In this document: piece by piece, positions 765-50,228 of the stretch
Layout: each line of letters begins with the position of its first letter
Numbering within the stretch: the first letter of the stretch is position 1
From: Diphasiastrum complanatum
Lineage: Eukaryota > Streptophyta > Lycopodiopsida > Lycopodiales > Lycopodiaceae
Direction: 5' to 3'
Assembly (NCBI GenBank): GCA_029204225.1
Contig: CM055097.1
Coordinates: 67,306,972 to 67,370,971, forward strand
Length of the DNA stretch: 64,000 nucleotides
The notes under the pieces: generated by a model
The model's input: only the letters and a program-made list of their open reading frames with translations
The model's database searches: none
What the model was told of the DNA's origin: nothing
Translations under genes and position numbers: made by a program

Positions 765-3700
765 GATATATCAAATCTGAATAATTTTTTATCTTCAAAC
801 CTTGGATTGACACCTGAAGATAGGCCACTTGCAATAAGTGGTCGGAATTGGGGAGATGCTGAGCTAGAAGGTTCTCTTATCGCTACTTGCCTTTTACAAT
901 CTGGAATATTTCTTACTTAAAATCATCATTGTTCTAGAATCTTTATTTTGCAATGAGAACGATCATATTCCCTATGATTTCCTTTCATTATTCTTCTTTC
1001 TCCTAGTTCCTTTCTGAACTCCCAGAACGCTTCTGATATTTCATACTTCTTGCATGAAGTATGGTGGTTAGATTCACAATTGTTTGTATCCCAGCCCAGC
1101 TTAAATAAAGTTTGACCTGTCCTTTTTAGTGGGCTCAAAGTACTCTACTACTAACTACATTTGTGATGGTTTCATTTGTAGTTCTCCTTGATCTTCTTTC
1201 ATTGTGGGTACTAGTTCTGTTGTTAGTTAGGAATTATCTTTGCAATCCCGTCGGTAGCTTAAAGGGTGTATATGTAGAGTTCAGAACTACTACTGGTACC
1301 ATTCTTCTGCATCTCGAGGGATCTAAGTAGGTGCATTTTCATGTTTGGAAATTGAAAAAGTTATGTCAGCCCTTAGTTTAAACTTTTAAAGTGTTTTTTG
1401 ATTTGGTGTTTGTGATGCTCTACATTTTGTGCAATGACGGAAAGTTTCAGCTGATACTCATGGTTATGGTCCACCCCTTCATTTTCCTTTTTATTTGTGG
1501 AAAATGCCTCAATCCTTACTAGCGTGCGAAGTCCCATCAAAGAAATAGATATAATTACAGTGCCATTTTACCCAGTAATCGTAGCAAAAGTTAAATAGGT
1601 TGGACCAATTTTAGCCATGTATGCATGGGTGCTGATGAAATTGCAAGTTGTGTTGCACAAGATGGAGTTCTTTGAACTTAGCTTTGGGGATCCTACTTGC
1701 ATGCTGTCATGTTTCTCTAGTTAGAGTACTTAATGCTAAAAACAACCAGCCACTTACGTTATGATTCTTATGATAGAAAAAATATCTACATTCTCATGTG
1801 CTCCTGGTGACATGTTACTAGCTGTCTTTGGTGCACCCATCATATTTTGTAGTCTTCGTCTTTGTGAAAGAATCAACACAAGCCTGATAAGGGATTTTCT
1901 GAAAAGACATTTTTTATGGTTTTGGCAGGAAATATACTTTCATTCATGGTGGGAGGGAAGCAAGCTTTTGAAATTTCTGTAGCAGATGTATCACAGACGC
2001 AGCTGCAAGGAAAGAATGAGGTGGTAGTGGAATTTCATGTAGATGATACAACTAGCGCCAATGAGGTACAACTAGAGCTTAATCAGTAAGAATTTGAGGT
2101 GTCAGCATTACGGGTAGAATCCTCATTTAATTGTCAAGTATAAAGACTAATATAGTAATGATATAATGATATGTAAACTCCCCTTGAGATATGGACTACT
2201 GTCATGATCTATTCCACGTCTTGTTGGATGTCTTTTTTCCTCTCCATTCTTTGGCTTGTTTGCCATGTAGCTTTAGAGGTTAGACCTAATCAATGACAGC
2301 TTCGCTCGTAGTTTTTAATGACATAAAACCTTTTGGCTGATACCAGAAAGATACTTTAATGGAAATAAGTTTTCATATACCCAGTACAAATGCTACATTT
2401 GTTGGAGACGATGAACGCCCCTCAGCCCAGGTATTAAATAATGTCTAAGGCGTCTTTGTAATGCTCTACCACTCCCGTAAATGTCTTTCTTCTATTTGTT
2501 CTTTAAATATCGCTTTTGGTTCAAGTGCAACCAGGCTTGTAATGTCACTATTTGTTTTCAAGTGTGCAAGAAAATGTGCACTGGAAGGGAAATACAAGGA
2601 ATAAAAAGACAGAATACTTATTTGCAATGATTTTTATGTAAATTTCAGTGTTCCATTTCCTTTTCCAGATCTTCCGCGAGAAGATCCTTTCCATGGCAGA
2701 TGTGGGCCCATCGGGTGCAGAAGCGATTGCATTGTTTGAAGAAGTTCACATACTTACACCAAGGTCTGCAGTATAGGATTGTTTTCTTTGCAGTTCTGTC
2801 CTGTCTTCCCAAAATTTTGAAAAGATTATTCATAAGTCTTGACTTAATTTAAAAGTTGAGAGGCATCTGATTCATTCTTACTCAATTTTGCAGAGGCCGT
2901 TATAATGTGGAGCTTCATCTTTCATTTCTTCGACTGCAAGGCCAGGCCAATGATTTTAAGATCCAATACAATAGTGTTGTCCGTCTGTTTGTTTTACCGA
3001 AGGTAGCCCCATAATTCTGTGCAGTATTATCCTGGTTTTTGAAGGTTCCCTTGAAACTGTTCAACTTGTGAAATAGCTGCAATGGCTCTCATGAGACCTA
3101 TGAAATTAAAGAAAGGAGCAAAACTACCACCTCTTTCTTGTGCATTAGAAGCCTCATTTTCTTTGAGGGGTTTTTATGTTTAATGTGGCAAATAATAGCT
3201 GTTGGCTGAAATGATATATATTTGCCAGTCCAATCAGCCGCATACTTTTGTTGTCATTACCTTAGACCCACCCATTCGCAAGGGACAAACATTCTATCCA
3301 CATATCGTGTTACAGGTAAAGCTTTGATGCTCTTAAAATAACCAATTTTTTGCTTCTTCATAGCCTCATTCCTTTGTGATCTTCAGTTAGTGGCTCATCA
3401 GCTCTTATTCCCTGGCTAATTCACATGATTTTGTTTTATCATATGTTAACAGTTTCCTACAGAGGAGATAGCTGAGTGCGCCCTTTCAATAAATCCAGAG
3501 CTACTTAACACAAAATACAAGGACCGGCTTTTACCTATCTATAAAGTGAGTTCTTTTTTAAGATGATCAGAACAACAAAATAGCATTTCCCACAGTAGAC
3601 GTGAATTCTCCTTTTACAATTCCAGAAAGCTGGGGTTGTAGTTCAGTTAGCAGTATTTGGTTCTAATCCACTTGATTGTTCTGTTTCTAGGGTCTATCAC

Positions 3701-6242
3701 ATGATGTCTTTCCTCAAATTCTACGAGGCCTTTCGGAAGCTAAAGTGACTCGACCTGGGAAGTTTCGCAGCAGTCAAGATGGATATGCAGTCCGAGCATC
3801 GTTGAAGGCAGAAGAAGGGACCTTATATCCATTGGAGAAGAGTTTTTTCTTTTTACCAAAGCCACCAACTCTGATCCTCCACGATGAGGTTAGCACTTTG
3901 ATTATTAGGGTCCGGGGAGCTTTGTGTCAAGACTTTACGATGGAATTATGGAAGTTAAGGTTGCATGTTTCTTTTGATTTCAGAGCATTCTAATGTAAAT
4001 GAAATAGGCAAAAAAGTGAAGCTTTTAGAAAAAAGTTTTTAAGGTCTCTTTTAGGAAAACATAGTTCCTAGCAACATACCTATCCTAATCTCTTACATCT
4101 GACCGGTCGATTAATCAGTTTGTCATTTAGAGGCTATTCCATTTGACAAGGATGAAAGTTCTCCGATGCTGAATTAGACATTATCACAAATAGTGAAGAA
4201 GCATCTCATAGTGCAGCAGATATCCTTCCTGGTGGACTCCTAGATGCTGATCAGTGGGCTAATTGCCAATGAGGCCGCATCATGTTAGCTTGGATGTTCC
4301 ATGTTTGAGGGATGATAATACTTGGTGAACTTGTAGATGCTAATCTGTAGGCTAATTTCTGATAAGGCATTTTCAAGTCAGTGTCAATGTCGATAGTCCA
4401 CAATAGGATGATGATAATGAGCTATTGATAACTGCTATTCTGATGGCTGATGGGTCAGCCAATAGCAAGCACAGATTTTCTTCAAGAGATTGATGATGAT
4501 GGTCGCTGGGATTTCTGGTGCTTACTACTGATGAGGCAATGATGATAATGGCTGATGATGTGAAGTCAAGTGACCTACAGGAGGTGACATCTCCAAAAGG
4601 GGAACCAGCTATGATTGAAAAAAGTTCTCCTCTAGCCTTAGCCTGGAAAAATTGCTATAAATATTTAAAAAAACACAATTAACACAAAGCATCACATCTC
4701 AAAGAAATGGATGACTGCAACTAAGGACAACATTGAATACAAATTCACTGTGTAGATACAGTAATACAAAAGAACTGCAGTCAGAGTCCTCCACAAAGAC
4801 CTCAAGTCACCAAATCAACCAAATTTGAAGAGCATGTGAATCACTCTATTTATACTGTTCTTGAAAGTTGAAGCCCTTAGGGGAACTTTCTAGTAAGCTA
4901 CCAAATTATGTCATCGATATGGTTATTGATCCCAAGAAGGGCATACCCTGCCACCTAGTCCCTGGCCCATCAGCCTGAACTAATCCACCAAATAATAACA
5001 TGGGTTATGTACACCTTCATTTGTTGAGTTGCATCCATGGTCCTTATCTTTATTACTTGGCGGATAAGTTGAGGCTGATCGGCCTGGGACCAGGTGGGAG
5101 AGGGCAGATTCTCTTGGTCCCAATGACCATTGTGATTAGCGGCTTCATTCATAGCAGACAGTAAAATTAGGGTTTGAGTTTCTCCTTTGGAGAACCTTCC
5201 TTATCATCATTGTAAAAGGTATTCCTGTGCCCCTTTGTTTTCTATTGCAGATTGATTACATTGAGTTTGAAAGGCATGGTGCAGCTGGAAGCATGTCTTC
5301 ACACTATTTTGACCTAGTTATACATCTCAAGACAGTGCAAGAACATCAGTTTCGCAACATTCAGCGAAATGAATATCACAATCTTTTCAATTTTATCAGG
5401 TAGACTTTGTATCATGCTTATGAGATTTTTATGCACCTATTCTCATTGCTTTGGTCTATAGTCAGTGGTCAATTGATGGCAAGGCTATCTTCAACCATCA
5501 TGTTGCGGTGGTGGTGGATATCCACCCACGTATCCTTGTCAATAAAAACGCTTTGCTGATAAGGACACTGAATGGGAAGGCAATCATAAAGTTCAATGTC
5601 ATGCAGGGCAATGGGCTGTGTGCTGTCAATTTGTTTAATTTATCCCAAGTCATCAACAAATGGAACCAAACTACAAAAATGTTAGCACCTGACCATGACT
5701 TGTTTAGAATCCTTCTGCAATTTTAAACCCAGCAGTTTCTTAATGTATCTAGGAGTATACTGCATAGTCACAAAGAATTGTGAAACAAACCTCTTTGAAT
5801 TGATTTGGATAAATTTTTTTGCAGAATCTTATTTTTGAATATCTAGTTCCCCAATGTCATTGAGTTGCTGAAATTTTCTGCAATTGAATGTAACAGGTGA
5901 TTATATTCTTGACAGGTAAAAGCTATCAGTCGCTGTATCACCCATCTCCATTTGTATATCTATTTAGTCATATCAGTAATGTTTGAGTTTTTAACATGAT
6001 CTAACATCCTCATTCCCTAGAACCTCCTGAGACATGATTTTTTCCAAAAAATCTTGCAGCCCCTTTTCTCAAGAAAAAGAACTGCTCAATTTGAATCAAT
6101 TCAAATTTTCTGGTGACTATGGTATACCGAGCTGTACAAATGCTACAGTGACTTTGTCAACTTTTCTGCAATTATTATCCCAAAACTTTGTCAATATGTA
6201 TATGCTACTCATGGATTTTGAGGGTTAGAAAATGGGCCACAG

Positions 6243-27879: not shown

Positions 27880-28436
27880 ATGACAAACATGGGAGAGTCC
27901 ATTTTGAATGAAAGTAGCAAATTGGACGAGATTTCCAACTATGCAGTGTGGAAATTCAAAATGAAAAACATACTAATGGAGAAAGACGTGTGGAAAGTCG
28001 TCACAGGTGATGAGAGAAGCCGCCAAATGAAGCGGATATCAAAGTGTTCGACAAAAAGATGAGGAAAGATTTGACCTTCATTAACTTGTCAGTGAAGGAT
28101 CACATCATTACCCACATATGTGATGCTGTGACACCCAGACAGGCATGGGATGTGCTAAAAAAGCAGTTCGAGATGTCAAATCCGTCAAGAATCATGTTTT
28201 TGAAGTCAAAGTTGAATAGTGCCCGCATGGAGCAAGGAGAGCACATTCAGACGTACATGACCAGAATCAAGACAATGAGGGATGAACTGCATTCTATTGG
28301 TGAGCGCATACGTGATGTGGAGCTGGTGCACAATGCATTGTGCGGCATTGCAGAACCCTATCAGATGTTTGTGAGCGGAATAGCATCAAGAGAAAGGTTG
28401 CCAACCTTTGACGAGCTCATAGGAATCTTGATGTAG
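27880..28436 (+). pseudogene. Element Y gag (UBN2)
   Basis: It begins at ATG 27880 (MTNMGESILNESSKL, then YAVWKFKMKNILMEKDVW). A frameshift near 28045 moves it into the next frame, which reads DLTFINLSVKDHIITHI and AWDVLKKQFEMSNPSRI. A TAG at 28434-28436 sits where the family usually has a Gln-rich continuation. It is the capsid-like protein of a copia element, with at least two disabling changes. Confidence 0.88.
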
Positions 28437-28454
28437 GAAGAGCAACGGCGAGAA

Positions 28455-31400
28455 ATGGTGAAAGCTAGACGTCAAAATATTGACAATCAGGCACTTGCGA
28501 CACGCCAAAACAAGGCAAGGGCAAGGGCAAGAAGAAGTCTAAGCAGCAATTTGCCAAACCTATCATGTGCCAAACCCAATCAAATAGCAAAAATAATGAA
28601 ATTCAAGGAGGATGAGGGATCTTCCAGTAAGACCAAAAAGAGAGGCAAGTGCTTCCATTGTGGTAAAAAGGGCCATTGGAAAAGTGAATGTCGCAAATTC
28701 TTGGCAGATCAAGGCAAGGGAAAACCAAAGCAAGCATGTAACCTTGTCGATGAGGGTGAGATTGATGACTCTAGCATCTTCATATCTTCATTGTCATCTA
28801 ATCAAGATGATCAAGCGTGGTATATTGACTCGGGAGTCACAAGACACATGACAGGTAACAAGAATTGGTTCAGTAGCATGAAAGTGTTGGATAATGGAAC
28901 GTCCGTTTCACAGGCAAATGGCGAGGTGTGCAAGATCAAGGGGATAGGCACTGTTTCAATCCAACTACTTGATGGAAAAAGCAAGATGATCAGGGAGGTA
29001 CTTTACGTACCAGGTTTGAAGAAAAATCTACTTTCTGTTGGAGTCATTACTGATCAAAAGTTGAAGGTAGAATTCGCCCATGATCGTTGCTTTGTAAAGG
29101 ATGTGAACCAAAAGTTCAAAGTTATTGCGGATGGAGTAAGGGAGCTCAATACAAAATTGTACAGGTTGAATGCTACAATCAAGGGGCAACATGGACTTGT
29201 ATCGTCCATTCCATCGCAAACTGAGTTGTGGCATAAGAGGCTTGGTCACTTGAACTTGGGAAGTCTCAGTTTGATGAGGAAATTGGAGATGGTAATAGGA
29301 TTTTCTACCATTGAAGACCACTTGAAATCGATGTGTGAATCATGTGTATATGAGAAGAAGCATCGAGAGAACTTCAATAAAGGGGATGTTGCAAGAGCAA
29401 AGAACATCCTGGATTTAATCCACACATATTTATGTGGGCCTATAAGGACCATGTCCTTAGGTAAAGCCTTCTATTTCATGACCTTTATTGATGATATGTC
29501 ACAAAAGACGTTGATCTACTTCTTGAAGAAGAAATCAGATGCATTTGACAACTTCAAGAGCTTCAAAGCATTGGTCGAAAATCAAACAGGTAGGAAGATC
29601 AAAGTCCTAAGATCAGATAGTGGAGGTGAGTACAAGTCTAATGACTTCAATGATCTTTGTGATCAATGCGGGATTAAAAGACAATTTACGCAAGCTCATA
29701 CTCCTGCTCTCAATGGTGTAGCTGAGCGCAAGAATCGTACGATTGTAGAAAGTGCCAGATCTATGCTAGCTGAGATGAAACTACCAAAGGATTTTTGGTC
29801 AGAAGCATGCAGTACGATAGTCTATCTTCAAAATAGAAGTCCTACCATTGCCATACCAAAGATAACACCCGAGGAAGCATTCACGAAGAAGAAGCCAAAG
29901 GTGAACCACTTGCGAATCTTTGGATGTAAGGCCTTTGTACACGTTCCTAAGGAAGAGAGACGTAAACTTGATGTGAAAGCTATCAAGTGCTATTCCTAGG
30001 ATATGATGATCGTGTGAAGGGCTATAGATGTTTTGATCCAGTGGAAAACAAAGTCCATCTAAGCCGTGATGTTATCTTTGATGAATCCAAGATGTATGAA
30101 GACGAGGATGCTGAGAAGATAGATACATCCAGTGGGAAAGATGGTATAGTGAGAATACCACCTGATGATGATCCATTCATTGACCTTCCGAGTGATGAAC
30201 ATGAGGATACATCTCAGGATACTACTACTCAACCTCAAGAGACAGGTTGGAGAGGTAGGGACAAACCTTTTGGTGCAAGAAGGATTGAAATTGCAGGTGA
30301 CAAACGCAAGGAGAAGGATATACCGTGGGATACATTTTCACCAGGAAGCCGATCACCTGACAGGAGGAATCTCTCTAAGTGGTTTGAGAGATTGTTGGAG
30401 AGTCGCGACATGGATGACTTTCCAGAATCATCTAGCCAGGGAGAGCTACGAAGATCAACAAGAGAGAAGACACAACTTGAGAGGTATGAAGCAAATTATG
30501 CTCTCTTATCTAGTATTATTCAAAGCAAAGAACCTTCGACTTTTGGTGAAGTGAAGGGTGATGACATTTGGGTCAAGGCCATGGGAGAGGAGATGGAGTC
30601 AATTGCTAAGCATAGCACATGAGACTTAGTAGAACCACCAGTTGGCAAGAAACCCATTGGTTGCAAATGGGTATACAGGACTAAGTACCATGCAGATGGA
30701 AGTATAGCAAAGCACAAGGCAAGATTGGTGATCAAAGGGTATGCACAAAGTAAAGGCATCGACTATGAGGAGACCTTTGCGCCGGTATGTAAGTGGAATA
30801 CTCTATGTCTACTTGTTGCTTTAGCTTCACATTTTGGTTGGCCTTTGCATCAGATGGATGTGAAATCTGCTTTTCTGAATGGTGAGTTGGAAGAAGAGGT
30901 GTTCATGGATCAACTTGAAGGCTTTGTAGTGAAGGGACAGGAAAATAAAGTATCTCACTTGCAGGAAGCACTTTATGGTCTTAAACAGGCACCACGTGCG
31001 TGGTAGAACACACTCTAATCCAAATTTATATGTCTTATGCTTTGATGGTATGGTTGCTTTGATTGCTCTTTATGTTGATGACTTGATTATTACGGGAAAT
31101 AATCAAGAGATGATAGACATGATCAAGAAAGACCTCATGGAACAATTCAAGATGATAGATCTCAGCCTGATGCATTATTGCCTGGAGTAGAGGTGTGGCA
31201 AAAAGGACACGAAGTGGGTTTAACATAGGTGAAGTATGTCAAAGAGTTGCTGTACAAGTTTAGGTTGCAGGACTGCAAACCAATGAATACTCCTATTGAA
31301 CCAGGTAAAAAGCTTTCTAAGCTTGATGAGTCACATTCATTTGATGCTACGCTGTATAGGCAATTAGTAGGGAGATTGATTTACCTTACCACGACTAGAC

Positions 31401-32018
31401 CAGATATATGCTATGTTGTTGGCATTGTAAGTCAGTTTATGACAGCACCTACGAAAACGCATTGGAAGGCAGCTAAACGCATTTTGCGTTATGTAAAACA
31501 CTTTAGAGTATGGCTTGATTTACAAGAAGCATGATGGTTTACCTGAGTTGTGTGGCTATGTGGATGCAGATTGGGGAGGTGACTATGATGATCGTAGATC
31601 CACCACAGGGTATGTATTCCAGTTTTGTGGTAGTTGCTTTTCCTGGTCTAGTAAGAAGCAAAGTACAATTGCTCTTTCAACCACAGAGGCAGAGTATAAG
31701 GCAATGTGTAGTGCAGCACAGGAAACTATATGGTTGAGACAAATCTTGGAAGAAGTTGGCATGATGCAGAAAAATCCCACGATATTACATAGCGATAGTC
31801 AGAGTGGCATTCAGCTAGCAAAGAATCCAGTGTTCCATGCGAGAACTAAACACATTGAGATTCAGTATCACTTTATACGTGAGAGGCTGCTGAGTCGTGA
31901 AATTCATGTTGTTCATTGTAGCACAGAAGAACAACTAGCTGATATTTTCACTAAGCCACTTGTTGGAGAAAAGTTTGATAAGTTTAGATCAAAGCTTTCT
32001 GTACTTAAAGTTTGTTGA
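28455..32018 (+). pseudogene. Element Y pol: zinc knuckle, protease, integrase, RT, RNase H
   Basis: 28455-29999 is one open frame with the knuckle CFHCGKKGHWKSEC (CX2CX4HX4C), protease YIDSGVTRHMTG, the GAG-pre-integrase LWHKRLGHLNLGSL, and integrase with FIDDMS, RSDSGGEY and NGVAERKNRT. A frameshift near 29990 leads to 29987-30622, ended by TGA at 30620 in place of a Trp. RT resumes with QMDVKSAFLNGELEEEVF and hits TAG at 31004. After a small deletion the LYVDDLIITGNN box follows at about 31070, then TAG at 31188. RNase H (31515-32018) has GYVDADWGGD, STTEAEY and HSDSQSG. The domain set is complete, but five or more lesions block expression. Confidence 0.93.
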
Positions 32019-35277: not shown

Positions 35278-35460
35278 CAAATCGAGAGGCAATTTCTTCA
35301 AGGCAATGGAAATCTTATTGGTGAGCTTATTGAGGAAGGCTAGATTTATTAGGTTTGATGCTCATCTTCACCCACTCTACTTCATGTTGGACGGAAAGTT
35401 TGGAATCTATCTTTTGATTTATGATGGTGACATTGGTGACATCAAGCAATGGTTGGACTG
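35278..35460 (+). pseudogene. Unknown protein-coding fragment, right part
   Basis: After the CACTA-like element, in the frame set by 32685-32892 and counting the 3-bp duplication once, it reads IERQFLQGNGNLIGELIEE to a TAG. An overlapping frame continues ARFIRFDAHLHPLYFMLDG and YDGDIGDIKQWLD to a TGA at about 35459, so a frameshift after GELIEE is likely. Family unknown. Confidence 0.45.
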
Positions 35461-35463
35461 AAC

Positions 35464-36531
35464 CTAAATCACTTTAGGAGGTGTCCTCTACACCTTAGAA
35501 CAGCCTTGAAGAGTCCCCAAAACTCTGATCTTCCCTCTCCTTGAATGCTAGAAAGCCTCCTCTATGAAATCACCTCTAAAACTCGCTTAGAAATCAATGC
35601 TTGGAGCAAGCAAAGCTTGCTATCTTGGTAATGTCGATTGAATTCAACTTTGCCTCTGGTTTTAGACACCTAAATACCTGCAAATGAAGTCACACAACAC
35701 CAATCTCCGATGTATTTGACTCACTTTGAGTTCTAGAATCAATGCTAGATGCTAAGATCCAATCTACACAAGATTTAGATCAAAAATTGTGATCAAATTG
35801 AATGAAAACCAAGGATTTAGCTCATTTCAGCCTTTAGGCTCTGATACCATCTAAAAATTACAGCAAATAAGGATCCTAAAACACTTGAAATAATGAGGGA
35901 AACAATAGATTATGATCTCATAAGATTAGCACAAGTTGAACCATTCAAATCCATCAAAAATCTATGCTTGAACCTCACTAAATGGCCCAAACCCTTGAAT
36001 AAGCCTTCACATGTGTGAAAGTACGGCCTTCCACAGTCTGAGTACTGTACACCAAAACTACATTCAATCCTATAATCATTAGTAATCACAAGAACTCAAA
36101 CAATTATGAACATAGAGAGCAATTGCACCATTATGAGAGAAAAATCATGAAATTGCTTGATTGATTTTGGTGAGATATCATCACCTATATATACATGATC
36201 CATCACGGTTTTGGGCAGCTATGAGTAGCCCTAAACCTATCCCTGATGCTAATTTTGGTGGATCTTTCATCCCTACCAAGTTAGGTTTGAAATCTTGGAG
36301 ATCCCTCAATGATGCAAAAATTACCAAAAATAGCTCCTATTTTTTCTCTCTTGTATCTAAGCATAATTTGGACTCATTCCAAAGGTTCTAACACTTAGGT
36401 CTACTTGAGAACATCTTTATGAATGGAATCCTATGCTATTTGGCACGTATGACAAACCACATCATGACCACCTAACCATTTACAAGTCATATGACCAAAA
36501 CTAGTCAAGCTAGAATTGTGAATTTTTAACA
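35464..36531 (-). mobile_element. Antisense copia fragment: leader, PBS and 5' LTR
   Basis: The PBS complement gctctgatacca is at 35839-35850. The LTR follows at 35851-36531 (about 680 bp) and ends, read on the minus strand, TGTTAAAAATTCAC. Its first ~45 bp are nearly identical to the LTR start at 47278, so it belongs to the same family as element V. Leader sequence extends left to about 35464 and then stops; no coding region is attached. Confidence 0.7.
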
Positions 36532-36884
36532 TCTCCCACGCCAACGCACTGCGTGAATTTGCATGCAGTGCTTGAAGAAATCAGAGAAAGATCAATATAG
36601 ATGATTTTCTTGTTGTGTCTGATTTCGAATGCAAATGCGTCTGCTGTTTATTCGTGTGTCTAAGTTTCCTTGTTCATTTGAATTTCGCACCTTGGTTGAA
36701 ACTATGTTGAATGCTACATTAATTTTATAAACGTAGATCAAGAGTGCCTGACTACACTCTGGAGGACTGTAGGAGTGATTCAGCTGGCAGTGTCCAGCGA
36801 TCGCATCTAAACTCCATCCGAGGGTAAAGAGAGTCATGGTTCCTTCGCAAAAGCCTCGCGACTGCGATTCTGATTCATTCTCAT

Positions 36885-36931
36885 CTTCAGTGGTATCAGA
36901 GCATATCACACTCTTCAGTGGTATCAGAGCC
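36885..36931 (+). promoter_or_regulatory. Tandemly duplicated tRNA-Met PBS of element Z
   Basis: tggtatcagagc occurs at 36892-36903 and again at 36920-36931, each preceded by tcttcag, with a 28-bp period. The normal state is one PBS directly after the LTR. The second copy continues into the gag leader. Confidence 0.9.
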
Positions 36932-37032
36932 GATCATCCTGTCATATTCTAACATAGCCAAGAAGCTAGCAGATCCAGGAGGCCAAGCACTCAAACAAAC
37001 AACATCAACAAGGGAACAGACTCCAAGAAACA

Positions 37033-37920
37033 ATGGCTTCAATCAACAGCATGCAGAGCAAGATCTGCACAATACTTGATTCTTCAAGATCTAACTTTCT
37101 AGCCTGGAAAGTTAAGACATCACTGATACTCAAGGGCGAAGGACTATTTCCCTGGGTGGATGGCACAGAAGAAATACCTACGACAACATGCAAGGAGCTA
37201 CATGAATGGAGGGAGAAAAATGACAAGGCAGTAGCCTTGCTATCATCTTCCATCGCAGATAGTCTCACACTTGACCTGGCTACACTCTCCAAAGCTAAGG
37301 AGATGTGGGATGCATTGCTGACCATATTTCAGACAAAATCAAGAAGTCAAATCATGATGCTAGAAGATCAGTTGACGAATTTGCAGTGGGATGGAAAAGA
37401 CCTCACTTCTTTCGTAAGAAAGATGAAGGATCTATTTTTGTCACTACATAACTCTAGAGCAGAGAACGATGTGTCAACTGAGAAGTAGCTCATGTACCTA
37501 TTGAGAGCCTTACCCAGATCATTCCAGACGACAAGAACCATGCTCACGAAAGATCCCGCCATGAACCTCAAAAAGGCGATTGTCAAGATTTGAGAGGAAG
37601 TCGAGGCCATAGAACATCTTGATCACAAAGATGGTTCTGATCAGGCCCTCTACGGCAACAAAGAAAAATCCAAGAAGCAATTCAAGCCTAAGAGAGAGCC
37701 AAATCAGAGGCAAGATTGTGATCAGGCAGAGAGAACCAGCAAAGGCGACTGGAAGAGCAAAGGGAGGTCGAAACAACAAGGTGCAGACAAGAAGTCTTGC
37801 ATGAGACGCAGAAGAGACGAGCATACAGTAGATACATGCTGGCTCAATCCCAAGATTGAGTGTATCCATTGCCATAAGAAGGGTCACGCAGCCATGGATT
37901 GCCGCCAGAACCCGAGAAAC
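37033..37920 (+). pseudogene. Element Z gag with zinc knuckle
   Basis: It starts MASINSMQSKICTILDSS and shows NFLAWKVKTSLILKGEGLF, then AKEMWDALLTIFQTKSRSQI, typical of copia gag. A TAG at 37486 and a later stop interrupt it. The basic tail carries CIHCHKKGHAAMDC (CX2CX4HX4C) at about 37858-37900. It ends at the insertion site of element W. Confidence 0.85.
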
Positions 37921-37923
37921 AAA

Positions 37924-38535
37924 TGTCAAAATATTGGAAAAATCTATCTAATGTTGTAAGTAGGGGTCCTAAAAATGCCAAAGATGAATTGAGCTCTTTT
38001 GGCTTAGTAAAGACCCATCTTAGAATAAAATATTCAAGGTAGGTAGAAGTAAAAACTCGAGCTACCATAGGAATTGCCATTTGTACTTTGCATGCCACAT
38101 TTAATGCATGAAAAGACTAGGTGGCACAATTAGACATATTGAGGTGGCTTGAATAAGTCTAGATAGCTGAGAGGTGGATTCATAACTCCAATTCAACTCA
38201 AAGTAGGAGAAGAGTCCATGGATCTGTATATATGCTATGTACTCTCGTTGAGAATATGATGAAATTTGTGTGTAATGCAAATTTGGAGACTAAGCTCTTT
38301 GTGCCCTCTCTCTCAACTCGAGTTTTGTACATTCATATTCTCTCTCTAGTCGAGTTGAGGCATTTATTGCACTTAGTTTCATGTTTTGCTAACAAATCTT
38401 GCTTGTAACACAATAATATTTCTTGTATGATCAACTTTCCTATTGTCAATCAAGCTAGTCTGATCTTTATGGTATTATTGGGCTTAGGAGATCAAAAGTA
38501 CATGTGTAGGGCATCCCACACGTGTGAATTCATCG
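37924..38535 (+). repeat. 5' LTR of element W
   Basis: 612 bp, followed directly by the PBS at 38536-38548 and preceded by acaaa. Its last base differs from the canonical A (catcg against catca in the 3' copy). Confidence 0.95.
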
Positions 38536-39290
38536 TGGTATCAGAGCCTACCTAAGATTTATAGGCAAATCTAATCAGAAAGTTTGCAAATTTGATCAGA
38601 TTTCAAGCTAGGACTTGTCTAGATTTTACTTTCTAGCTAGTTTGTAGTTTTTTGGTGATTTAGAGCTTCAAACCACTTTGAATGGTCCAGATCAGGTACT
38701 GTACGGAATTTTAGGTGCAGGCACGTGTGAAATCCGCCCATTTTCAGTTTGGTGGTTCTCTCTCACCTCATATCCAAATTTCATGCAAATTAGCCCACTA
38801 GAAAGCTAGAAATGTGAAAATTTGATGCAATTTGAATCATGACAGTTGGATAAGCCAATCAAAAGTTATAAGCTTTTGAAGAGTCGTAGGTAGGACGCCT
38901 AGACCTGTGACAAATCATGAGTACATGTCATTTATTGCTTGAATGATCACAAAAATCATCCAGAAATTGACCAATCTCATCTATATCTGATTTAGACAAA
39001 ATTTATAGGTTCTAGGCAAATTTTTTCATACAAATAGATTGTATTTGAGTCAATTTGACATTTTTGGAGTATTTCACATGTGTGAAATTCAGAGAACCAT
39101 AACTTTTGCCATACTTCATTTTTTTTTATGATTCAAATCTTGTTTTAGAGAGATTGTCAAGCTAGTGAGATCTATCTCACAGTTTTTTGCTTTGTCTTAC
39201 ATAGGATTTGGTTTTTTGCCCTTGATTGGTTCCTATAGTGAGAAGATAAGCAATTTTTTCATCCATCTTTTTTTATTTCCATCATTCTTT

Positions 39291-40897
39291 ATGACTTCAA
39301 TGAGTGTCTTTCTATTAGAAGCAAGTGAAAGATTGCCAACCTCCAATTACTCAATTTGGAAGGTTAGGATGGAATCTGTCTTAATACTACAAGATGTGAT
39401 GGATATTGTACTTGGTATTGAAGAAGAACCACAAATTCCTCAAGAAATTCCAAAGTACAAAAAGAGAGCTAGGATGGCTCTGCATTATATTAAGATGAAT
39501 GTCTCAAATGACATCTTAAGAGAAATTGGTGCTTGTACTAATGCCAAAGATGCTTGGGATACTCTCAAGTCCATCTATGAGGCAAAGAATACTTCTAGAC
39601 TTCTAACACTAAGAAACCAAATTTTTCAAAGTGTACAAAGAAGTGATGAATGTGCTTCAGCTTATGTAATGAGAGTTAAAGAACTTCGTAGAGAATTGTC
39701 ATGCATAGGAGACTCCATCAACCAAAATGAACTTGTTCAAGTCATACTTAATGGGTTAAAGGAGGAATATGACAACCTTGTTCAGAGTTATGCCATTAAG
39801 GAGGAGCTACCAAGTTTGGAAGCACTCCAAAGTGTGCTCATTTCTAAAGAATCAAGACAAGAGTATAAACTCTTGAAAATGGAGAGATTGTCTCTCAACA
39901 TTGATGGTAAAGCTCTCTTTACCAAAGACAAGCACAAGACAAGAACTAAGAATCAACACCAACCCTCTTCAAGCAAGAACAATCTTATTTCCAAGGAGAA
40001 AGGAGAAGAGGATGAGTCCTCTCAAGCTTTCACATCCAAGAAGAAGAAGAAAAACATCAAGTGTTTCTTTTGTGGCAAGAAGGGGCATTATGCCACCAAT
40101 TGCTTCAAGAAGAAGAGTCAATTCAAGCAAGCCAACATTTTTAATGAAGAGAAGGAAGATGCTCATGCAAGTGATGGAGAGGGATCTCTTATGGTCTCGA
40201 ATTTTTCTTCATCACCTTTCAAGAAGGATGGTTTGAAGTATATTGATAGTGGAGCTTCCTCGCATATGTGTAGCTCCAAGCATGCTTTTTCATCCACGTC
40301 ACCTTATGAAGGAGCCAAGAAGTTCATCTACACAGCAAATGATCATGAGTGTGCCATTGAAGGCATAAGGACTATTTCCCTAAAGCTTTCTTCATCAAAA
40401 GTTCTTTCTCTGTCTAAAGTACTTTTTGTTCCTAAGTTAACAAAAAATCTTATTAGTGTTGGGCAATTGTTTGATAGTGGACTAGATGTGAATTTCAATG
40501 TTGATACATGTACAATCGAGAAGCATGATGAGATTCTTGCATTTGGGTTTAGATATGGTAGAATCTACAAGCTTGATCCCAAAGAGTATGCTAACTCTTG
40601 TGATGGTGCTTTTGCTTCTCATATTTCTTTGGAGAAACTATGGCATAGAAGGTTGGGACATCCTGACTATAGTTCTATGGTGTCTATGGTCAAGAAAGCC
40701 AAAGCTATTGGCTTGCCTAATCTTATCTCCAAGAATTTCAAAACATGTGAGGCTTGTGCCATATCTAAGTCTCATAAGAGGCCTTTTTCAAAGTCATCTT
40801 TCAAGACTACACTGTCCATTGGATCTCATACACTCGGATGTGCACTTCTCATCTTCAAAGAGCAAGGGTGGTGCTACTTGCTTTGTAACTTTCATTG
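39291..40897 (+). pseudogene. Element W gag, zinc knuckle, protease and integrase start
   Basis: The likely start is the ATG at 39291 (MTSMSVFLLEASERLPTSN); the frame is open upstream but that part is not gag-like. Order: gag core (SIWKVRMESVLILQDV, AKDAWDTLKSIYEAKN), a Lys-rich linker, the knuckle CFFCGKKGHYATNC, protease YIDSGASSHMCS, and the GAG-pre-integrase LWHRRLGHPDYSSM with CEACAISKSHKRPF. A frameshift near 40810 moves integrase into another frame. The open frame of over 500 codons shows recent decay. Confidence 0.93.
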
Positions 40898-43234
40898 ATG
40901 ATTTCACTAGATTTACTTGGTTATATCTTCTAGCTTCAAAGTCTATGGTGTTTGACTATTTCCTAAAGTTCAAAGCTCTAGTTGAAAAACAATTTTCATA
41001 CAAAATCAAGATTCTTAGAATTGATGGAGGTGGTGAGTACACTTTCAATAAATTTCATGATTATTGTGAGCTTGAAGGCATTAAAAGGGAGTTTTCTTGT
41101 GCATATACACCATCTCAAAATGGGGTGGCTGAAAGAAAGAATAGAACATTGTGTGAATGTGCCAAAACCATTAGAATTGAGGCATCCTTGCCAAAAGACT
41201 TTTGGGGTGAGGCCATCAATTGTTCAGACTATCTTTGCGATCGACTCCCTCATGTTGCACTTGGAGGAAAGTCACCATATGAAGCACTTTATTTGAAGAA
41301 ACCTAAGGTTGATCACGTTAGAGTATTTGGATGCATATGCTTTGTTTATATTCCCTTGGAAACGAGAAAGAAGGATGATCCTTGTGCAAGAGAAAGCCTA
41401 TCGAATCTACATGCTCTCTACTTCTAAAGTAATTGATAGTAGAGATGTAGTTTTTCATAAAGAAGAAAAGTCCAATCTTGGAGGGGCTGAGATCAAGCAA
41501 CCTCAAAATCTATCACCTTTTGTTATTGAAGACAATCAACATATGGAGGAGTTGAGATTTGAAGATGGAAGTCCTCGGATTTTCACTCCTAGAAGATCCA
41601 TGAGGGAGAGATCCGAGCCTAAGAGGCTCACTTATGATGACAAAGGAAAACAAGTGGATCTTGATTCCGCTTATGCTTATTTTGTTTCTCACGAGGAGTC
41701 CAAAGATGTCCAAGAAGCCCTCAATACCAAGGAGTGGTATGAGGCCATGAAGATTGAATATGATGCCTTAATCACCAACCACACATGGGAGCTAGTAGAT
41801 CCACCACCTAACATGCATATCATTGGATGCAACTGGGTGTTCAAGATCAAGTACAATCATGATGGCTCCATCAACAAGTACAAGGCAAGATTATGTGCTA
41901 AAGGCTTTGCACAAATATATGGCCTTGACTATGAAGAAACCTTTTCTCCTGTAGCAAAGATGGTGACAATAAGAATCATAATCTCTCTTGTCTTATTTTT
42001 TAAGTGAAAATTGTATCAACTTGACGTCTCCAACGCTTTTTTGAATGGCTATCTTGAGGAGGAGATATATATGGAACAACCTCAAGAATTTATCAAGGAT
42101 AAATCTAAGGTGTGTTTGCTATTTAAAAGTCTTTATGGCTTGAAGCAAGCACCTAGATCATGGTATTCAAGACTCAACAACTTTCTACTTTCATTAGGAT
42201 TTGTGCTTAGTGACTATGATCCTTCTATGTACTTAAAGTTTGATGGTAGTAATATTGTCATTCTTCTAATCTATGTAGATGACATTATTCTTAGTGGAAG
42301 TTGTTTGATGCTATTTCAAAAAACCAAAGATGCATTAGGAAGAGAATTTAAAATGCAAGATCTAGGAGAGATCCATTACATTTTAGGCGTTGAGATTGAT
42401 TTTCATGAAGAGTATGCTTTTATTTGTCAATCTAGATATGTCTTTTCTATGTTGAGAAAATTCAATATGCAAAATTGTAAAGGCATAGATACTCCCATGG
42501 AGCAACATGTAAAAGATCCTATTAAAGGTGATGAAAGATCCTTCGAGGACATCACACTTTATATGAGTCTTATAGGCTCTTTAATTTGGCTTACTATCAC
42601 TAGACCCGATTTGAGCTATTGTGTGCACAAATTGAGTCAATTTATGCAAGATCCTAAGATCCAACATTGGAAGATGGCCAAGAGAGTTCTAAGATATGTA
42701 TCTTCTACTCAAGATTATGGTTTATTGTACAAGAATGAAGATCTAACCATTGTTGGCTATTCGGATTCCGATTTTGCAAGTGATAAGATGGATCGAAAGT
42801 CCATTAATGCATATACTATCTTTCTTGGAGGCAATCTTGTGTCTTGGCTTTCAAAGAAGCAAGATACCATATCCCTATCTTCTTGTGAGGCCGAGTAGAA
42901 AGCACTCACAACAACAACTAAAGAGGTGCTTTGGATCAAGAGGTTAATCATGGAGCTAAAGTGCATCAAAGAGGATGATCTTCCCTTGATCAAGTGTGAC
43001 AACATATCGGCCCAAGCTCTTGCAAACACCTATTTTTCATGCAAGAAACAAGCATATAGAAGTGGCACACCATTTTGTAAGGAAAAAGCTCATTGAAGGT
43101 GAAATAAACTTGGAACATGTCGACATATCTTCATGTATTGCTGATCTTCTCACAAATCCACTTTGCAAAAGTGCCTTCTCAAAGCATAGATCTAATCTTG
43201 GTCTTATCTCATCGATGCTTGATCCACATTAGAT
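40820..43234 (+). pseudogene. Element W integrase, RT and RNase H
   Basis: The integrase core reads LDLIHSDVHF, FIDDFTRFTW, RIDGGGEY and NGVAERKNRT. A frameshift near 41390 leads to VIDSRDVVFH and the RT start WELVDPP. A stop lies at about 42005. RT continues with LDVSNAFLNGYLEEEIYM and the LIYVDDIILSGS box near 42270. RNase H has YSDSDFASD, SSCEAE followed by a TAG at 42896, then KCDNISAQ. A frameshift near 43020 precedes HARNKHIEVAHHFVRKKL. All catalytic boxes are present, so few lesions separate it from an intact copy. Confidence 0.93.
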
Positions 43235-43250
43235 ACATTTTTAGGAGGAG

Positions 43251-43866
43251 TGTCAAAATATTGGAAAAATCTATCTAATGTTGTAAATAGGGGTCCTAAA
43301 AATGCCAAAGATGAATTGAGCTCTTTTGGCTTAGTAAAGACCCATCTTAGAATAAAATATTCAAGGTAGGTAGAAGTAAACACTCGAGCTACCATAGGAA
43401 TTGTCATTTATGCTTTGCATGCCACATTTAATGCATGAAAAGACTAGGTGGCACAATTAGACATATTGAGGTGGCTTGAATAAGTCTAGATAGTTTGAGA
43501 GGTGGATTCATAACTCCAATTTAACTCAAAGTAGGAGAAGAGTCCATGGATCTATATATATATATGATGTACTCTCATTGAGAATATGATGAAATTTGTG
43601 TGTAATGCAAATTTGGAGACTAAGCTCTTTGTGCCCTCTCTCTCTACTCGAGTTTTGTACATTCATATTCTCTCTCTAGCCGAGTTGAGGCATTTATTGC
43701 ACTTAGTTTTATGTTTTGTTAACAAATCTTGCTTGTAACACAATAATATTTCTTGTATGATCAGCTTTCCTATTGTCAATCAATGCTAGTCTGATCTTTA
43801 TGGTATTATTGGGCTTCGGAGATCAAAAATACATGTGTAGGGCGTCCCACACGTGTGAATTCATCA
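43251..43866 (+). repeat. 3' LTR of element W
   Basis: 616 bp, preceded by the purine tract ttaggaggag and followed by acaaa. A short (ta)n expansion near 43553 explains most of the length difference from the 5' copy. Confidence 0.95.
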
Positions 43867-43871
43867 ACAAA

Positions 43872-44410
43872 TAAGCATAGAACAGACAGGAGAACAACAA
43901 TAGTTCATCCTATGTCGAGGAGCCTGAGAGCTAAAAAATGGGCAAAGAAAGAATGAACAGAAATTGTTCGACCGCCTATATCTGTGAAGACATGTGTGCA
44001 GCATCAACATCTACCACACATGAGGTGATTCTAGACTCAGGAGCCACCTCACACTTCGTGACATCAAGACGAATAATGTCTGCTTTCAGAAGTGCGAATC
44101 CCTCAAGATTCATAGTTCTTGGAGATGGATCTAGAGATCAAGTGAACGGTATTGGTCCACTATGGCTCAACACCAATGCCTAGTGTCCCTCACACGACAC
44201 CACATGAGCTATGGTGGGGTAGAAAGCCCAATTTGTCTCACGTCAGAATCTTTGGCTGTGCAGCTTATGCACATATTCCTAATAAGCTTCGAAAGAAGCT
44301 TGATGAGAAAGCCGAGTAGGGATTTTTGGTAGGTTATAACAACAATTCGTCATACTACAAAGTCTACATGCCAGACACGAACACTATGAAAACAGTAAGA
44401 GATGTCAGAT
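43872..44410 (+). pseudogene. Element Z, right part: protease and integrase tail
   Basis: It continues element Z after W. The protease box VILDSGATSHFV is near 44030. The sequence then jumps to an integrase C-terminal part (HELWWGRKPNLSHVRIFGC, IPNKLRKKLDEKAE, a TAG, then GFLVGYNN). The core of integrase is deleted between about 44185 and 44190. The remnant ends at about 44410, where element V begins. Confidence 0.8.
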
Positions 44411-44520
44411 AGAGAGGAAGACTCAACATAGAAGGTGTTTTATACATTCCTACAATAACAAAGAATCTACTAAGTGTTGGCCAAATGGTAGACAATGGTT
44501 TCAATGTTGACTTTGCCTCA

Positions 44521-46442
44521 GACCCTCTATGCCTAAGATGAAGCGAAGACACCCTAGATCTACCATCTTGAACTCTAAGGATAGATCTATCTTGATTATT
44601 TCAATACCATCAACACTATTTCCACTAATGATGATGTCATCTACATAAATGAGTAAAAGTACAATACCAACATCATCAAACTTAATTTAAAGAGTGGAAT
44701 CATATTCACTTGAACAAAAGAAAGTGAAATAAGATAGCAATGTAGTCTTGAATTCCAAGATCTCGAGGCTTGCTTCAAGCCATAGATGCTTCTTTGAAGA
44801 TGGCATACTTTTTTCTCCATTCCATGCTTGGTGAACCCTTGTGGCTGCTCCATATAGATATCCTCTTCCAAAAGATCATTCAAGAAAGCATTAGAGACAT
44901 CCATTTGACATAGGATCCGTCCAACATGTGATGCAAGTGCAATGATTAGCCTTATTGTAACCATCTTGGCCACGGGTGCAAAAGTTTCCTCATAGTCTAT
45001 CCCTCCCTCTTGAGCATAATCTTTTGCAACTAATCTTGCTTTATGTTTGTTAACACTCCCATTGCATTCAACTTAAGCTTGAAGACCCACTTGCATCCTA
45101 TTACATTCCTTTGAGGTCTATCAACAAGCGACCAAGTTTCATTCTCAATCAAGGCATTATACTCATTCAACATAGCTTTATATCATTCTTTGGAGTTCAA
45201 TGCATCTTCAACATTAGATGGTTCTTCAAAACTAGATAAAGCATAAGAAGTGGATGAGATACCCTCAACTTGCTACCCTTTGCCTTGATATGTGAGCCTT
45301 GATGGCTCCACTTTTTTCCTTGAAGATCTCCTTGGTGTGATAGGTGGGTTTGGTGCTTGCTCCTCCATGAGCTCGTCCTCAAAACCAAGATCTTGCTCCT
45401 CGGCCATCTTCTTCTTGATTGTTGGAGCACTTGAGCCTTCTTCAAACATATGCATATGATGTTCATCAAATATAACATCCCTTGAAACAACAAATTTGTT
45501 CAAGGATGGGAGATAGACTTTGTAGCCCTTGCTTGAGCTAGCATATCCAAGCATGATCCCTCTTGTGGAAGATGGATCCTCCTTGGTTCTTGTTTCCAAT
45601 GGCACATGCACATAACATATATACCCAAAAACTTTCAAGTGATTAAGATTGGGTTTCTTTCCATACAACATCTCATAAGGAGTTTTGCCTTCAATCGCTT
45701 TGCAAGGCACCCTATTCATCAAGTAGTTGCACATACAAGAGACTCACCCTATTTGGGAAAACAAGCATCTAATCTTAAAGCCTTAGAACATTCACATAAT
45801 GTTCTATTCCTTCTTTCAGCAACTCCATTTTGTTGAGGAGTGTAAGGACAAGAAGTCTCTTTCTTGATCCCTTCCTCCTCACAAAAGGCCTTGAACTCAT
45901 TGGAGATGAATTCTCCACCATTGTCACTTCTAAGAATCTTGATGCTATGATTATGATGCCTTTCCACAAACAACTTGAACTTTACAAAAGTATCAAATAC
46001 TTGAGACTTGAAGGAAAGTAAGAACACCCAACAATATCTTGAGTAGTCATCAATGAAGGTTAAAAACATGGATGGACCTCCATTAGATTTGGTGCTAGCA
46101 ATGTGCACATCCGAGTGTATGAGTTCAAGAGGATGAGATGACTTTGTGATGGAGTTAGGAAACACCTTCTTATGTGCCTTGGATAAAGCACAAGCTTCAC
46201 AAACCTTGTCTTTCTTCCCAATAGACCTTGGTAGGCCTAAAACATACTCCTCCTTGATCATAGCCTCCATGGAACCCGAGTTGACATGTCCAAGTCTTTT
46301 GTGCCAAAGTGAAGGTAGATATCTTGCGCTTCTCAGCCAACGTGACAACATTAGTATCCACAAATGCATCCAACTTATAAATTTTGCCAAGTCTAGTGCC
46401 CTTAACCACTATCTTACCCTTTTTCTTGATGAAACATTCATT
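44521..46442 (-). pseudogene. Inverted integrase-RT segment of element V
   Basis: Reading the minus strand from 46442: GAG-pre-integrase tail (GTRLGKIYKLDAFVDTN, LWHKRLGHVNSGSM), integrase (FIDDYSRYCW, RSDNGGEF, NGVAERRNRT), and the C-terminal part (VPCKAIEGKTPYEML, SRDVIFDEHHMH). RT N-terminus follows (MDVSNAFLNDLLEEDIYM, SIYGLKQASRSW), then LIYVDDIIISGN at about 44650, ending at the FILGIE motif at 44521. Stops near 45738 and frameshifts near 44700-44750 are present. Codons at both ends fit the plus-strand halves, which is why an inversion is inferred rather than a second element. Confidence 0.88.
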
Positions 46443-47200
46443 TGATAAGTCAAGTAAACTATGCTCAAAGTCTTTTGAAGAAGTTTAAGATGGAAGTATG
46501 CAAAAGTGTTGACACACCAATGGAGCAAGATGTAAAAGTGCCAAATGAAGATGATGAAAGTTCCTTCATGGACATCACTTTGTTTAGGCAACTTATAGGC
46601 TCCTTAATGTGGATCTCTATAACTAGACCAGATCTTAGCTTTAGTGTATGTAGGTTGAGCCAATCCATGCAAAAGCCATTGAATATCCATTGGAAAAAGA
46701 CTAAGAGGATTCTAAGATACATCTCGGATACATTGGATTTTGGGATTCTATATAGAGGAGATGTGATTAACCTTCATGCATTTAGTGATTTAGATTTTGC
46801 AGGGGACAAGAGGGATAGGAAATCAACAAGTGTCTATTCAACTTTCATTCATAGGAGAAGGTTTGGTTTCATGGCTTTCAAAAAAGCAAGAAACTATATC
46901 TCTATTTTCAACCGAGGCCGAGTACAAAGCTTTGACAACCACTACAAAGGAGGTACTTTGGATCAAGAGATTATTGGTGGAGCTAAAGATCATGGATTCA
47001 GAGGAGGCACCAATCATCTACAATGACAATATATCAGCCCAACACCTTGCATCTAACCCAATATCCCATGCAAGATCTAAGCACATTGAGATATGCCATC
47101 ACTTTGTGAGATAAATGGTGCAAGCCAAGGAGATTGCTTTGGAGCATGTTCCAAGCAATGAATGTGTAGCTGGCTACTTACTAAACCACTTCAAAAGACA
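46443..47200 (+). pseudogene. Element V RT C-terminus and RNase H
   Basis: It reads ISQVNYAQSLLKKFKMEVCK, ITRPDLSFSVCRLSQSM, then RNase H FSDLDFAGDKRDRKSTS. A frameshift at about 46840 follows, then FSTEAEYKALTTTTKEVLWI, IYNDNISAQHLAS and HARSKHIEICHHFV, with a TAA at about 47113 and a degraded tail. RNase H acidic residues remain, although the first is in a DLD context. Confidence 0.88.
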
Positions 47201-47277
47201 CCTTTTATGAAGTTTAGATCATCACTTGGAGTGATTAGTAAAGCAATGATTAAACCAAGCTAGATAGTGAGGAGGAG

Positions 47278-47328
47278 TGTTAAAAATTCACAATTCTAGC
47301 TTGACTAGTTTTGGTCATATGACATGTA
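47278..47328 (+). repeat. Truncated 3' LTR start of element V
   Basis: tgttaaaaattcac to catatgac, nearly identical to the reverse complement of the right end of 35851-36531. After about 47325 the similarity stops, so the rest of the LTR has been replaced or lost. Confidence 0.75.
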
Positions 47329-47999: not shown

Positions 48000-49220
48000 A
48001 GAAATTGTCAATTTTTGGTGAATACATGTCATTTTCTTGTGTCAAGTAGATCTTGAAGATGGACTACTGCAACCTACTTGGTCTATGGACCCTATCCAGA
48101 CCTCATAAGGTGTCTTGCCATTCAGGGCCTTGGTGATGGATCGATTCTATAAGTAGGCAGCTGTAGTAACAGCTTCTATCCAGAACCTCTTTGGAAGAGA
48201 GGCATGGGCCATCATGCCCTTGGCACTTTTGATGAGTGTCCGGTTCTTCCACTCAGCTACACCATTGGACTGAGGTGAGTAGCTGGTTGTGTATTGTTGA
48301 AGTATCTCGTTGGCCTTGCAGAACTCCTTGAATTATGTGGAGATGTACTCTCCCCCTCCATATGTGCGTAGAGTCTTGATCTTCCTCTGGGTCTGATTTT
48401 CTATAGACACCTTGAACTGCTTAAAGAACTTGAATCCTTCGGATTTGTTCTTCATATAGTAGGTTATAGTCCTTCGAGAGAAGTCGTCGATGAAGGTTAA
48501 AAAATAGAGAGCTTTCCCTGTGGAAGCAATCTACATCGGGCCACAAATGTTCGTTGTGTACAAGGTCAAGCAAGCCCTTGGATGTATGAACTGAGTTTGA
48601 ATTGAAGGGACTTCTAGCATGCTTGCTGATAATACAACTTTCACATGGAGAAGTTGGCTTGCTGACTGAAGACAGGTCTTGTACTAGATTCTGAACTGAC
48701 ATTTGTTGAATATTGTTGTAGTTAAGATGGCCAAGTCTGAAATGCCACAACATATCAGTTGATTCAGAAGTGGCTGTGTGAAGAGCTTGATTGTTAGAAG
48801 AATAGCAATGGCTGAGTTTGTAAAGATAGCCACTTCTTCTTCCGTAGGCTAGAACCTTCCGGGATTTGTCAAGGATTGTGCAGCCTTCTGTATCGAATTC
48901 GACCCTCTGACCTGAATCGGTGATTCTGCTAATTGAGAGCAGATTCTTGGTCAGATTTGGAATATGGAGAACGTTGGACAACAACTTGACTTCACCCCTT
49001 TTGAATTCAACCCTGACTGTTCCTTCACCTTCGATTGAATGTGATGATTTGTCTCCAAGTTGCACAACTCAAGAGTGGGTGAACGACTTGTAGTCTTTGA
49101 ACCAGTCATGATGGTGAGTCATATGTTGTGTTGTTCTGGAGTCTAGATATCAGGAATTGATATCTTGTTGTTCTCCAACTTTGGTCATGAAAGCTGCTTC
49201 ATCTTCTTGTTGTTGTTTTT
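48000..49220 (-). pseudogene. Element T protease relic and integrase
   Basis: The protease signature is mutated (LDSRTTQHMT where DSGAT/S is expected). The 48421-49065 frame has NVLHIPNLTKNLLSISRI, DMLWHFRLGHLNYNNI and CESCIISKHARSPF. Integrase continues in other frames with GGGEYIS and SPQSNGVAEWKNRTL near 48250-48340, down to about 48000. Stops and frameshifts are frequent. Confidence 0.85.
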
Positions 49221-49246
49221 GCTGATTTGAGTGACTGGTTGTAGCA

Positions 49247-49630
49247 CTATGTGCTTGTTGTTGGAACTGCTTCTTCTTTTCGTTGTTGTACTTCAAAGTT
49301 TGGTAGTTTCCTTAAATGGAGCTTAGATGTAACGTCTCTAATGTCGTAGAAAGTTGCTAAGATGTCCCATGCATCCTTAGTTGTCTGAGTAGCACGTATG
49401 TGGTTGATCTGAGTGTCCTTGATGTTGAGGGTGGTCATGGCAAATGCTTTGCCATCTCTTAGTCTCCACTTGGTGATGACGGCTGCATCACCTTCTGGTT
49501 TGAGTTTTGTGCCATCAACGATGTCCCACAGTTCTTTGTCTAGAAGTATAACCTTCATCTTGAATTTCCAGAGATTATAGTTATCTCCATCAAGTTTGTC
49601 AATGAGAGATGAACTAGATGATGGATCCAT
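49247..49630 (-). pseudogene. Element T gag (UBN2)
   Basis: The ATG at 49630-49628 gives MDPSSSSSLIDKLDGDNYN, then LWKFKMKVILLDKELWDIVD, LRDGKAFAMTTLNIKDTQI and TKDAWDILATFYDIRDV. It closely resembles the gag of element X and of other copia elements. The frame ends without a zinc knuckle because a deletion joins it to the protease relic. Confidence 0.85.
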
Positions 49631-50228
49631 TCTGGTTGAACAAGATCGTTGATAGGAACAATGACTATCGGAAGTTGCGTGTTTGCTAGAAAGACGTCTT
49701 GATAGAAATAAGACTGATAATCCGTAGAAAAAATGCAGATTACTAAAATGCATGCTCTGATACCATGTCATAAATCGGTGGTCATGAGTGCAGCGGCTCA
49801 GTTGCTCAGAGCGTAGGCATGTAGGAACGGAAACACAACAGTTAGCAGCAGAAATATTTAAGTAGAAGAATTTATACAGTTTGCGCAAATGAACGATGCA
49901 GTAGTGAGACAAAAATTGCACTTTGATTAAAAATATCAACAATGAGTACAATGGCTTGAAGTAATAACTTCAGCTTGCTGAGCATGATAACGCTGGCTAC
50001 AGATAACTCTGATTGAAAAAAAGAAAATTTAAAAAATTAAATCTTACATAGCTTGATTCAACTAATATAGAGATTTACAAGAGAGGAAATATCTTACAAG
50101 CCTTTAAGGCTATTTATGCTAGTTTGTACAAAAGTTGGTAACCGCCAACTGCCTTTGGAATATTTTTTTGTCCAGCTATTTTTAGGGTTACTCATAAGTC
50201 GGTGAAGTCGGTCAGCCAAAAATGCGGG

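What the first reader, a model, noticed from the sequence alone, without database searches (positions are those of the whole stretch)
44521..46442. In-place inversion of the integrase-RT core of a copia element
The sequence at first looks like two head-to-head elements. At both breakpoints (44520|44521 and 46442|46443) the inverted segment's codons complete the plus-strand halves. The FILGIE motif of RT ends at 44521 on the minus strand, and the next expected RT residues (ISQVNYA..) start at 46443 on the plus strand. The pre-integrase domain likewise splits between 44520 and 46442. A single internal inversion of about 1.92 kb explains this. Clean internal inversions of retrotransposons are rarely described.
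Basis: partly seen in the sequence, partly recalled or inferred. Interest (0 to 1): 0.75.

Follow-up and report, generated by a model that had tools for sequence, protein, structure and literature searches.

The report
Copia element with flipped internal segment
One old, broken copy of an abundant plant jumping gene has a 1.9-kilobase piece of its interior flipped around in place, most likely by sloppy repair of DNA breaks; it is a real but isolated scar.

Summary
Window 44418-47328 is a fragment of one copy of a young, high-copy Ty1/copia family, and about 1.92 kb of it (44521-46442, ends ambiguous by 3 bp) is inverted in place. Natural copies from the same genome settle it: L015-L017 carry the same three blocks in order on one strand, contiguous apart from 23-25 nt at the RT site. 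On ruler copy L016 the window reads 2593-2694 (+), 2692-4622 (inverted), 4648-5531 (+). With up to 3 mismatches, the uninverted RT site has 2,779 places in the genome and each inverted junction one, here. None of 23 other copies shows an opposite-strand block (20 were chosen through an uninverted RT site).

The inversion is not perfectly clean: a 3-bp microhomology on the left, an 11-bp loss on the right, and a 10-bp loss nearby. Microhomology-assisted joining of two breaks is the best explanation (about 0.8). Sequence left of 44418 is not this family; it looks like a second copia element, with a third nested in it. No reads were available. A private scar in a dead copy: low to moderate interest.

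The parts
44418..44520 (+). Protease C-terminal / pre-integrase part of the element (family B), uninverted; 5' truncation point at 44418
   Evidence: L016 ruler 2593-2694 at 97.1%; matches of L015-L017 stop at 44418; L016 differs left of it
44518..44520 (.). 3-bp microhomology at the left inversion junction; matches both the left flank and the end of the inverted segment
   Evidence: reading of natural copies beside the window
44521..46442 (-). Inverted segment: pre-integrase (46442 side), integrase core, SH3-like domain, RT up to its last part (44521 side)
   Evidence: L016 ruler 2692-4622, opposite strand, 96.7%; Pfam rve, gag_pre-integrs, SH3_retrovirus, RVT_2
46443..47277 (+). RT C-terminal part, RNase H, purine-rich tract; uninverted; 11 bp lost at its left edge
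   Evidence: L016 ruler 4648-5531 (with the LTR start) at 97.4%; domains by similarity to element A
47278..47328 (+). First 51 bp of the 3' LTR, then truncation
   Evidence: match to the family LTR stops at 47328
35442..36531 (-). 5' LTR and leader of another, separately truncated copy of the same family; primer-site-like motif beside the LTR
   Evidence: primer-site label recalled
36532..37923 (+). Second copia element (C): sequence before the primer site taken as LTR end (inferred from position), primer site, gag; interrupted by element A
37924..43866 (+). Third copia element (A) with two LTRs, nested in C gag; 5-bp target duplication ACAAA at 37919-37923 and 43867-43871; its frames are broken
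   Evidence: LTR pair 21 differences in 612
43872..44417 (+). Taken as element C continued (inference from position and frame): protease N-terminal part, then a fragment of integrase C-terminal region; ends where family B begins

Best explanation
A copy of a young, high-copy Ty1/copia retrotransposon family was broken at two places inside pol. The breaks lay in the pre-integrase region and in RT, about 1.92 kb apart. The freed segment was rejoined in the opposite orientation by microhomology-assisted end joining, leaving a 3-bp microhomology at one junction and an 11-bp loss at the other. The copy is also truncated at both ends and carries stops and frameshifts. Shown: the in-place inversion, the junction anatomy, and that each junction has a single match in the assembly. 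Inferred: that it happened in the chromosome after insertion, and that end joining did it.
For: Natural copies L015-L017 carry the three blocks uninverted (L015 and L017 also on ruler L016). The uninverted RT site has 2,779 genome matches, and each inverted junction has one (up to 3 mismatches). In 29 loci searched for exact junction motifs, neither inverted junction occurs. The junctions show a 3-bp microhomology and a small deletion. The best inverted match within about 40 bp of the two break sites is 7 bp; by my own estimate about 0.3 such matches are expected by chance. The three segments do not differ significantly in divergence from L016: 5/103, 56/1922 and 17/879 (P = 0.13). Other cut ends lie close by: 44418, 47328 and 35442.
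Against: No copy with the inversion and intact LTRs or target duplication is known, so the timing relative to insertion cannot be shown. The inverted segment is nominally more diverged than its right flank (2.9% against 1.9%; P = 0.16). A looser gapped comparison of 300 bp around each junction gave a scattered inverted alignment that I did not test against shuffles. No sequencing reads were seen.
Confidence: 0.8

Rival explanations
1. The inversion arose during reverse transcription or from joining of incomplete cDNA pieces, and the element inserted already inverted; its ends were lost later.
For: Microhomology and small losses also fit template switching. Sequence inversions are mentioned among defective HIV-1 proviruses (passages of PMC9238239).
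Against: Each junction has one match in the genome, so the inverted form did not spread. None of 23 other copies has an opposite-strand block (biased sample). The copy lacks complete LTRs and a target duplication, so nothing ties the inversion to the insertion.
Confidence: 0.13
2. Assembly artefact in a region of near-identical repeats.
For: The family has thousands of RT sites, which makes assembly hard; no reads were available.
Against: Misjoins usually happen inside identical repeats (general knowledge). Here the junctions show base loss and short microhomology, and the best inverted match near the breaks is 7 bp. The 10-bp short form next to its uninverted flank has no match in the genome at up to 2 mismatches, so no other copy is an obvious source. 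The window lies in a 75.6-Mb contig.
Confidence: 0.05
3. Two separate truncated copies of the family met head to head by chance.
For: The neighbourhood is full of truncated copia pieces.
Against: The blocks tile the ruler with a 3-bp overlap at one join and a 25-bp gap at the other. Independent truncations would have to coincide at both points.
Confidence: 0.01

Closest known systems
Ty1/copia LTR retrotransposons (Pseudoviridae) of plants
   Same: Domain order protease, integrase, RT, RNase H; LTRs of about 682 bp; exact 5-bp target duplications in 16 of 17 copies with two full LTRs; Pfam domains rve, RVT_2, gag_pre-integrs
   Different: This copy has its integrase-RT core inverted and lacks gag, the 5' LTR and most of the 3' LTR
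Rearrangements of retrotransposons attributed to double-strand-break repair in maize centromere 10 (PMC4806543; passages seen)
   Same: Partial, deleted and chimeric elements ascribed to break repair, in many cases with microhomology
   Different: The passages seen (12 of 14 places) describe chromosome-scale inversions near the centromere, not an inversion inside one element
Defective HIV-1 proviruses with sequence inversions (PMC9238239; passages seen)
   Same: Internal inversion of a reverse-transcribed, integrated element
   Different: The passages do not say how those inversions arise; host and element are unrelated
LINE-1 5' inversions (twin priming recalled; only search listings seen)
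   Same: Inverted part of a retroelement
   Different: Target-primed LINEs; here an LTR element with the inversion in the middle, flanked on both sides by uninverted sequence

Membership tests
Ty1/copia LTR retrotransposon | Integrase lies before RT in pol (copia order) | tested here: met
   Natural copies L015-L017 carry the pre-integrase/integrase/RT and RT/RNase H blocks in that order on one strand; domains
Ty1/copia LTR retrotransposon | Two near-identical LTRs and short target duplication | tested here: met
   In the family: 17 of 24 loci examined have two full LTRs, and 16 of these 17 show an exact 5-bp duplication, L016 one mismatch (my reading of the printed flanks). The window copy itself has neither
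Ty1/copia LTR retrotransposon | tRNA-Met-type primer site beside the 5' LTR | tested here: met
   Seen beside the LTR of the sister fragment F; the motif label is recalled. Absent from the truncated window copy
End-joining inversion | No long inverted repeats at the breakpoints | tested here: met
   Best inverted match near the two sites 7 bp; a looser gapped alignment was not tested for significance
End-joining inversion | Short microhomology and/or small deletions at junctions | tested here: met
   3-bp microhomology left, 11-bp loss with 1 shared bp right (my reading)
End-joining inversion | Event happened in chromosomal DNA after insertion | not testable with these tools
   Needs the same insertion in related genomes; none held (one search says the genome has no relatives here)
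Recombinase-driven invertible segment | Inverted recombination sites flanking the segment and repeated inversion | tested here: not met
   No inverted match beyond 7 bp near the breaks; inverted junctions at one place only
LINE twin priming | Target-primed LINE with 5' inversion next to a 5' truncation | tested here: not met
   LTR copia element; the inversion is internal and flanked by uninverted sequence on both sides

The most novel reading that the evidence does not exclude
The inversion was made inside a virus-like particle during reverse transcription, so that an LTR retrotransposon of the copia type can insert with an inverted pol core, as retroviral proviruses sometimes seem to do.
Probability: 0.13. 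Interest if true: 0.5.

Novelty: new member of a known kind. Interest (0 to 1): 0.3.

Why it matters
It is a well-resolved example of a small inversion inside one copy of an LTR retrotransposon, with break sites read to the base against uninverted sister copies. Such events confuse gene and repeat annotation, because one element looks like two head-to-head ones. They also record how break repair may erode repeats in a large plant-like genome. A family with about 2.8 thousand uninverted RT sites makes it possible to measure how often this happens.

Tried and rejected
Different lineages for the two halves: considered in earnest, because the + strand left of 44418 is a different copia sequence and because a 51-bp LTR match (36481-36531 against 47278-47328) looked contradictory. 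Protein comparisons with outgroup copias could not decide it; some favoured a different lineage (44422-44514 is 62% identical to L002 and 52% to element A, while several parts of the inverted core and its right flank are nearest A). The natural copies decided: 44418-44520 belongs with the inverted core, and the 36-kb LTR is part of a second copy of the same family.

External relatives: three viral-contig scans found none. One genome-contig scan gave six distant copia loci in bacterial assemblies, used only as outgroups.

Literature: ten searches listed no paper that by title or start of abstract describes an internal inversion of an LTR retrotransposon. Three listed papers hold the phrase 'internal inversion(s)' with LTR retrotransposon(s); I opened one, and its passage is about chromosomes (PMC9055855); PMC10794172 and PMC6070720 were not opened. 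Ten word searches are no proof of absence.

Not answered because the machine was busy: the count of uninverted pre-integrase sites, the left boundary of family B against the whole genome and the right flank.

Full report
WHAT IS THERE. The window is part of a 1.74-Gb assembly of 5,176 contigs, contig C6, very likely a plant from its copia load (inference). In 35-48 kb several copia elements overlap. Element A (37924-43866) has two LTRs and lies in the gag of element C with a 5-bp target duplication. Sequence taken as element C resumes at 43872 and ends at 44417, after a protease part and a piece of integrase C-terminal region. The subject of the finding, family B, occupies 44418-47328.

THE INVERSION. 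Mapped piece by piece on element A and on outgroup copias, 44418-44520 and 46443-47277 lie on the + strand, and the piece between them, carrying pre-integrase, integrase and most of RT, on the - strand. Pfam agrees for the pieces it recognises. In the window's own genome, L015, L016 and L017 have LTR sequence at both ends (L015 one complete and one partial) and carry all three blocks in order on one strand; the first two overlap by 3 bp, and 23-25 nt lie between the matches of the last two. With L016 as ruler the window reads 2593-2694 (+), 2692-4622 (-), 4648-5531 (+). This is an in-place inversion within one copy.

JUNCTIONS (my reading). The left junction shares 3 bp between the flank and the segment end. 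The right junction has lost 11 bp, with 1 bp shared. A further 10-bp loss between short direct repeats lies beside the segment's RT end; that short form next to its uninverted flank has no match in the genome at up to 2 mismatches. The net loss is 21 bp. The best inverted match within about 40 bp of the two break sites is 7 bp. A looser gapped alignment over 300 bp around each junction was printed but not tested against shuffles.

HOW COMMON. The uninverted RT-site pattern (up to 3 mismatches) has 2,779 places (1,393 + 1,386); the reversed-pattern control has 0. Each inverted-junction pattern has one place, this window, with controls 0. In 29 loci searched with exact motifs, neither inverted junction occurs; the uninverted RT motif is in 27 of 29, and the uninverted pre-integrase motif in 19 of the 24 long loci (of the five without it, L025, L029 and L036 have internal deletions there, L018 lacks that part, and L030 is colinear and lacks only the exact motif). 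None of 23 further copies (L015, L017, L018, L025-L044) has an opposite-strand block of at least 60 bp at 85% identity, while several have internal deletions or are cut short. Twenty of the 23 were picked from places with an uninverted RT site, which biases the sample against this kind of event; the upper 95% bound for 0 of 23 is 12%.

AGE. The family is young: 17 copies with two full LTRs have LTR distances of 0 to 0.0225. The window copy differs from L016 by 5/103, 56/1922 and 17/879 in its three segments, not significantly different, as expected of one copy. The nested element A has an LTR distance of 0.035.

MECHANISM. Two breaks and microhomology-assisted end joining in the chromosome fit the lack of long inverted repeats, the short microhomology, the small losses and the uniqueness. 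This is an inference of about 0.8. A reverse-transcription origin (about 0.13) and misassembly (about 0.05) are not excluded. Break repair acting on retrotransposons is described for maize centromere 10 (PMC4806543, passages), and inversions in defective HIV-1 proviruses are mentioned in PMC9238239 (passages).

VERDICT. It is a private scar in a dead copy: a tidy example, of limited general interest.

Noticed in passing
35442-36531: 5' LTR and leader of a second, separately truncated copy of the same family on the minus strand; it abuts sequence taken as the LTR of element C.
   Followed up: partly
44146-44417: In element C, protease sequence runs straight into an integrase C-terminal fragment, skipping roughly 0.9 kb on element A's coordinates; a deletion or other rearrangement inside C.
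   Followed up: partly
48096-49951: Another truncated copia element on the minus strand (gag, protease, integrase part) with a primer-site-like motif near 49755 (label recalled).
   Followed up: no
28044-32018: A further copia element on the plus strand with gag, protease, integrase, RT and RNase H pieces.
   Followed up: partly
L010 and L011 (contig C4102): A family member with a tandem duplication of 312 bp spacing around the RT site.
   Followed up: no
L001-L006: Six copia-bearing contigs filed under bacterial genomes, probably eukaryotic contamination (four in one Trichormus assembly).
   Followed up: partly
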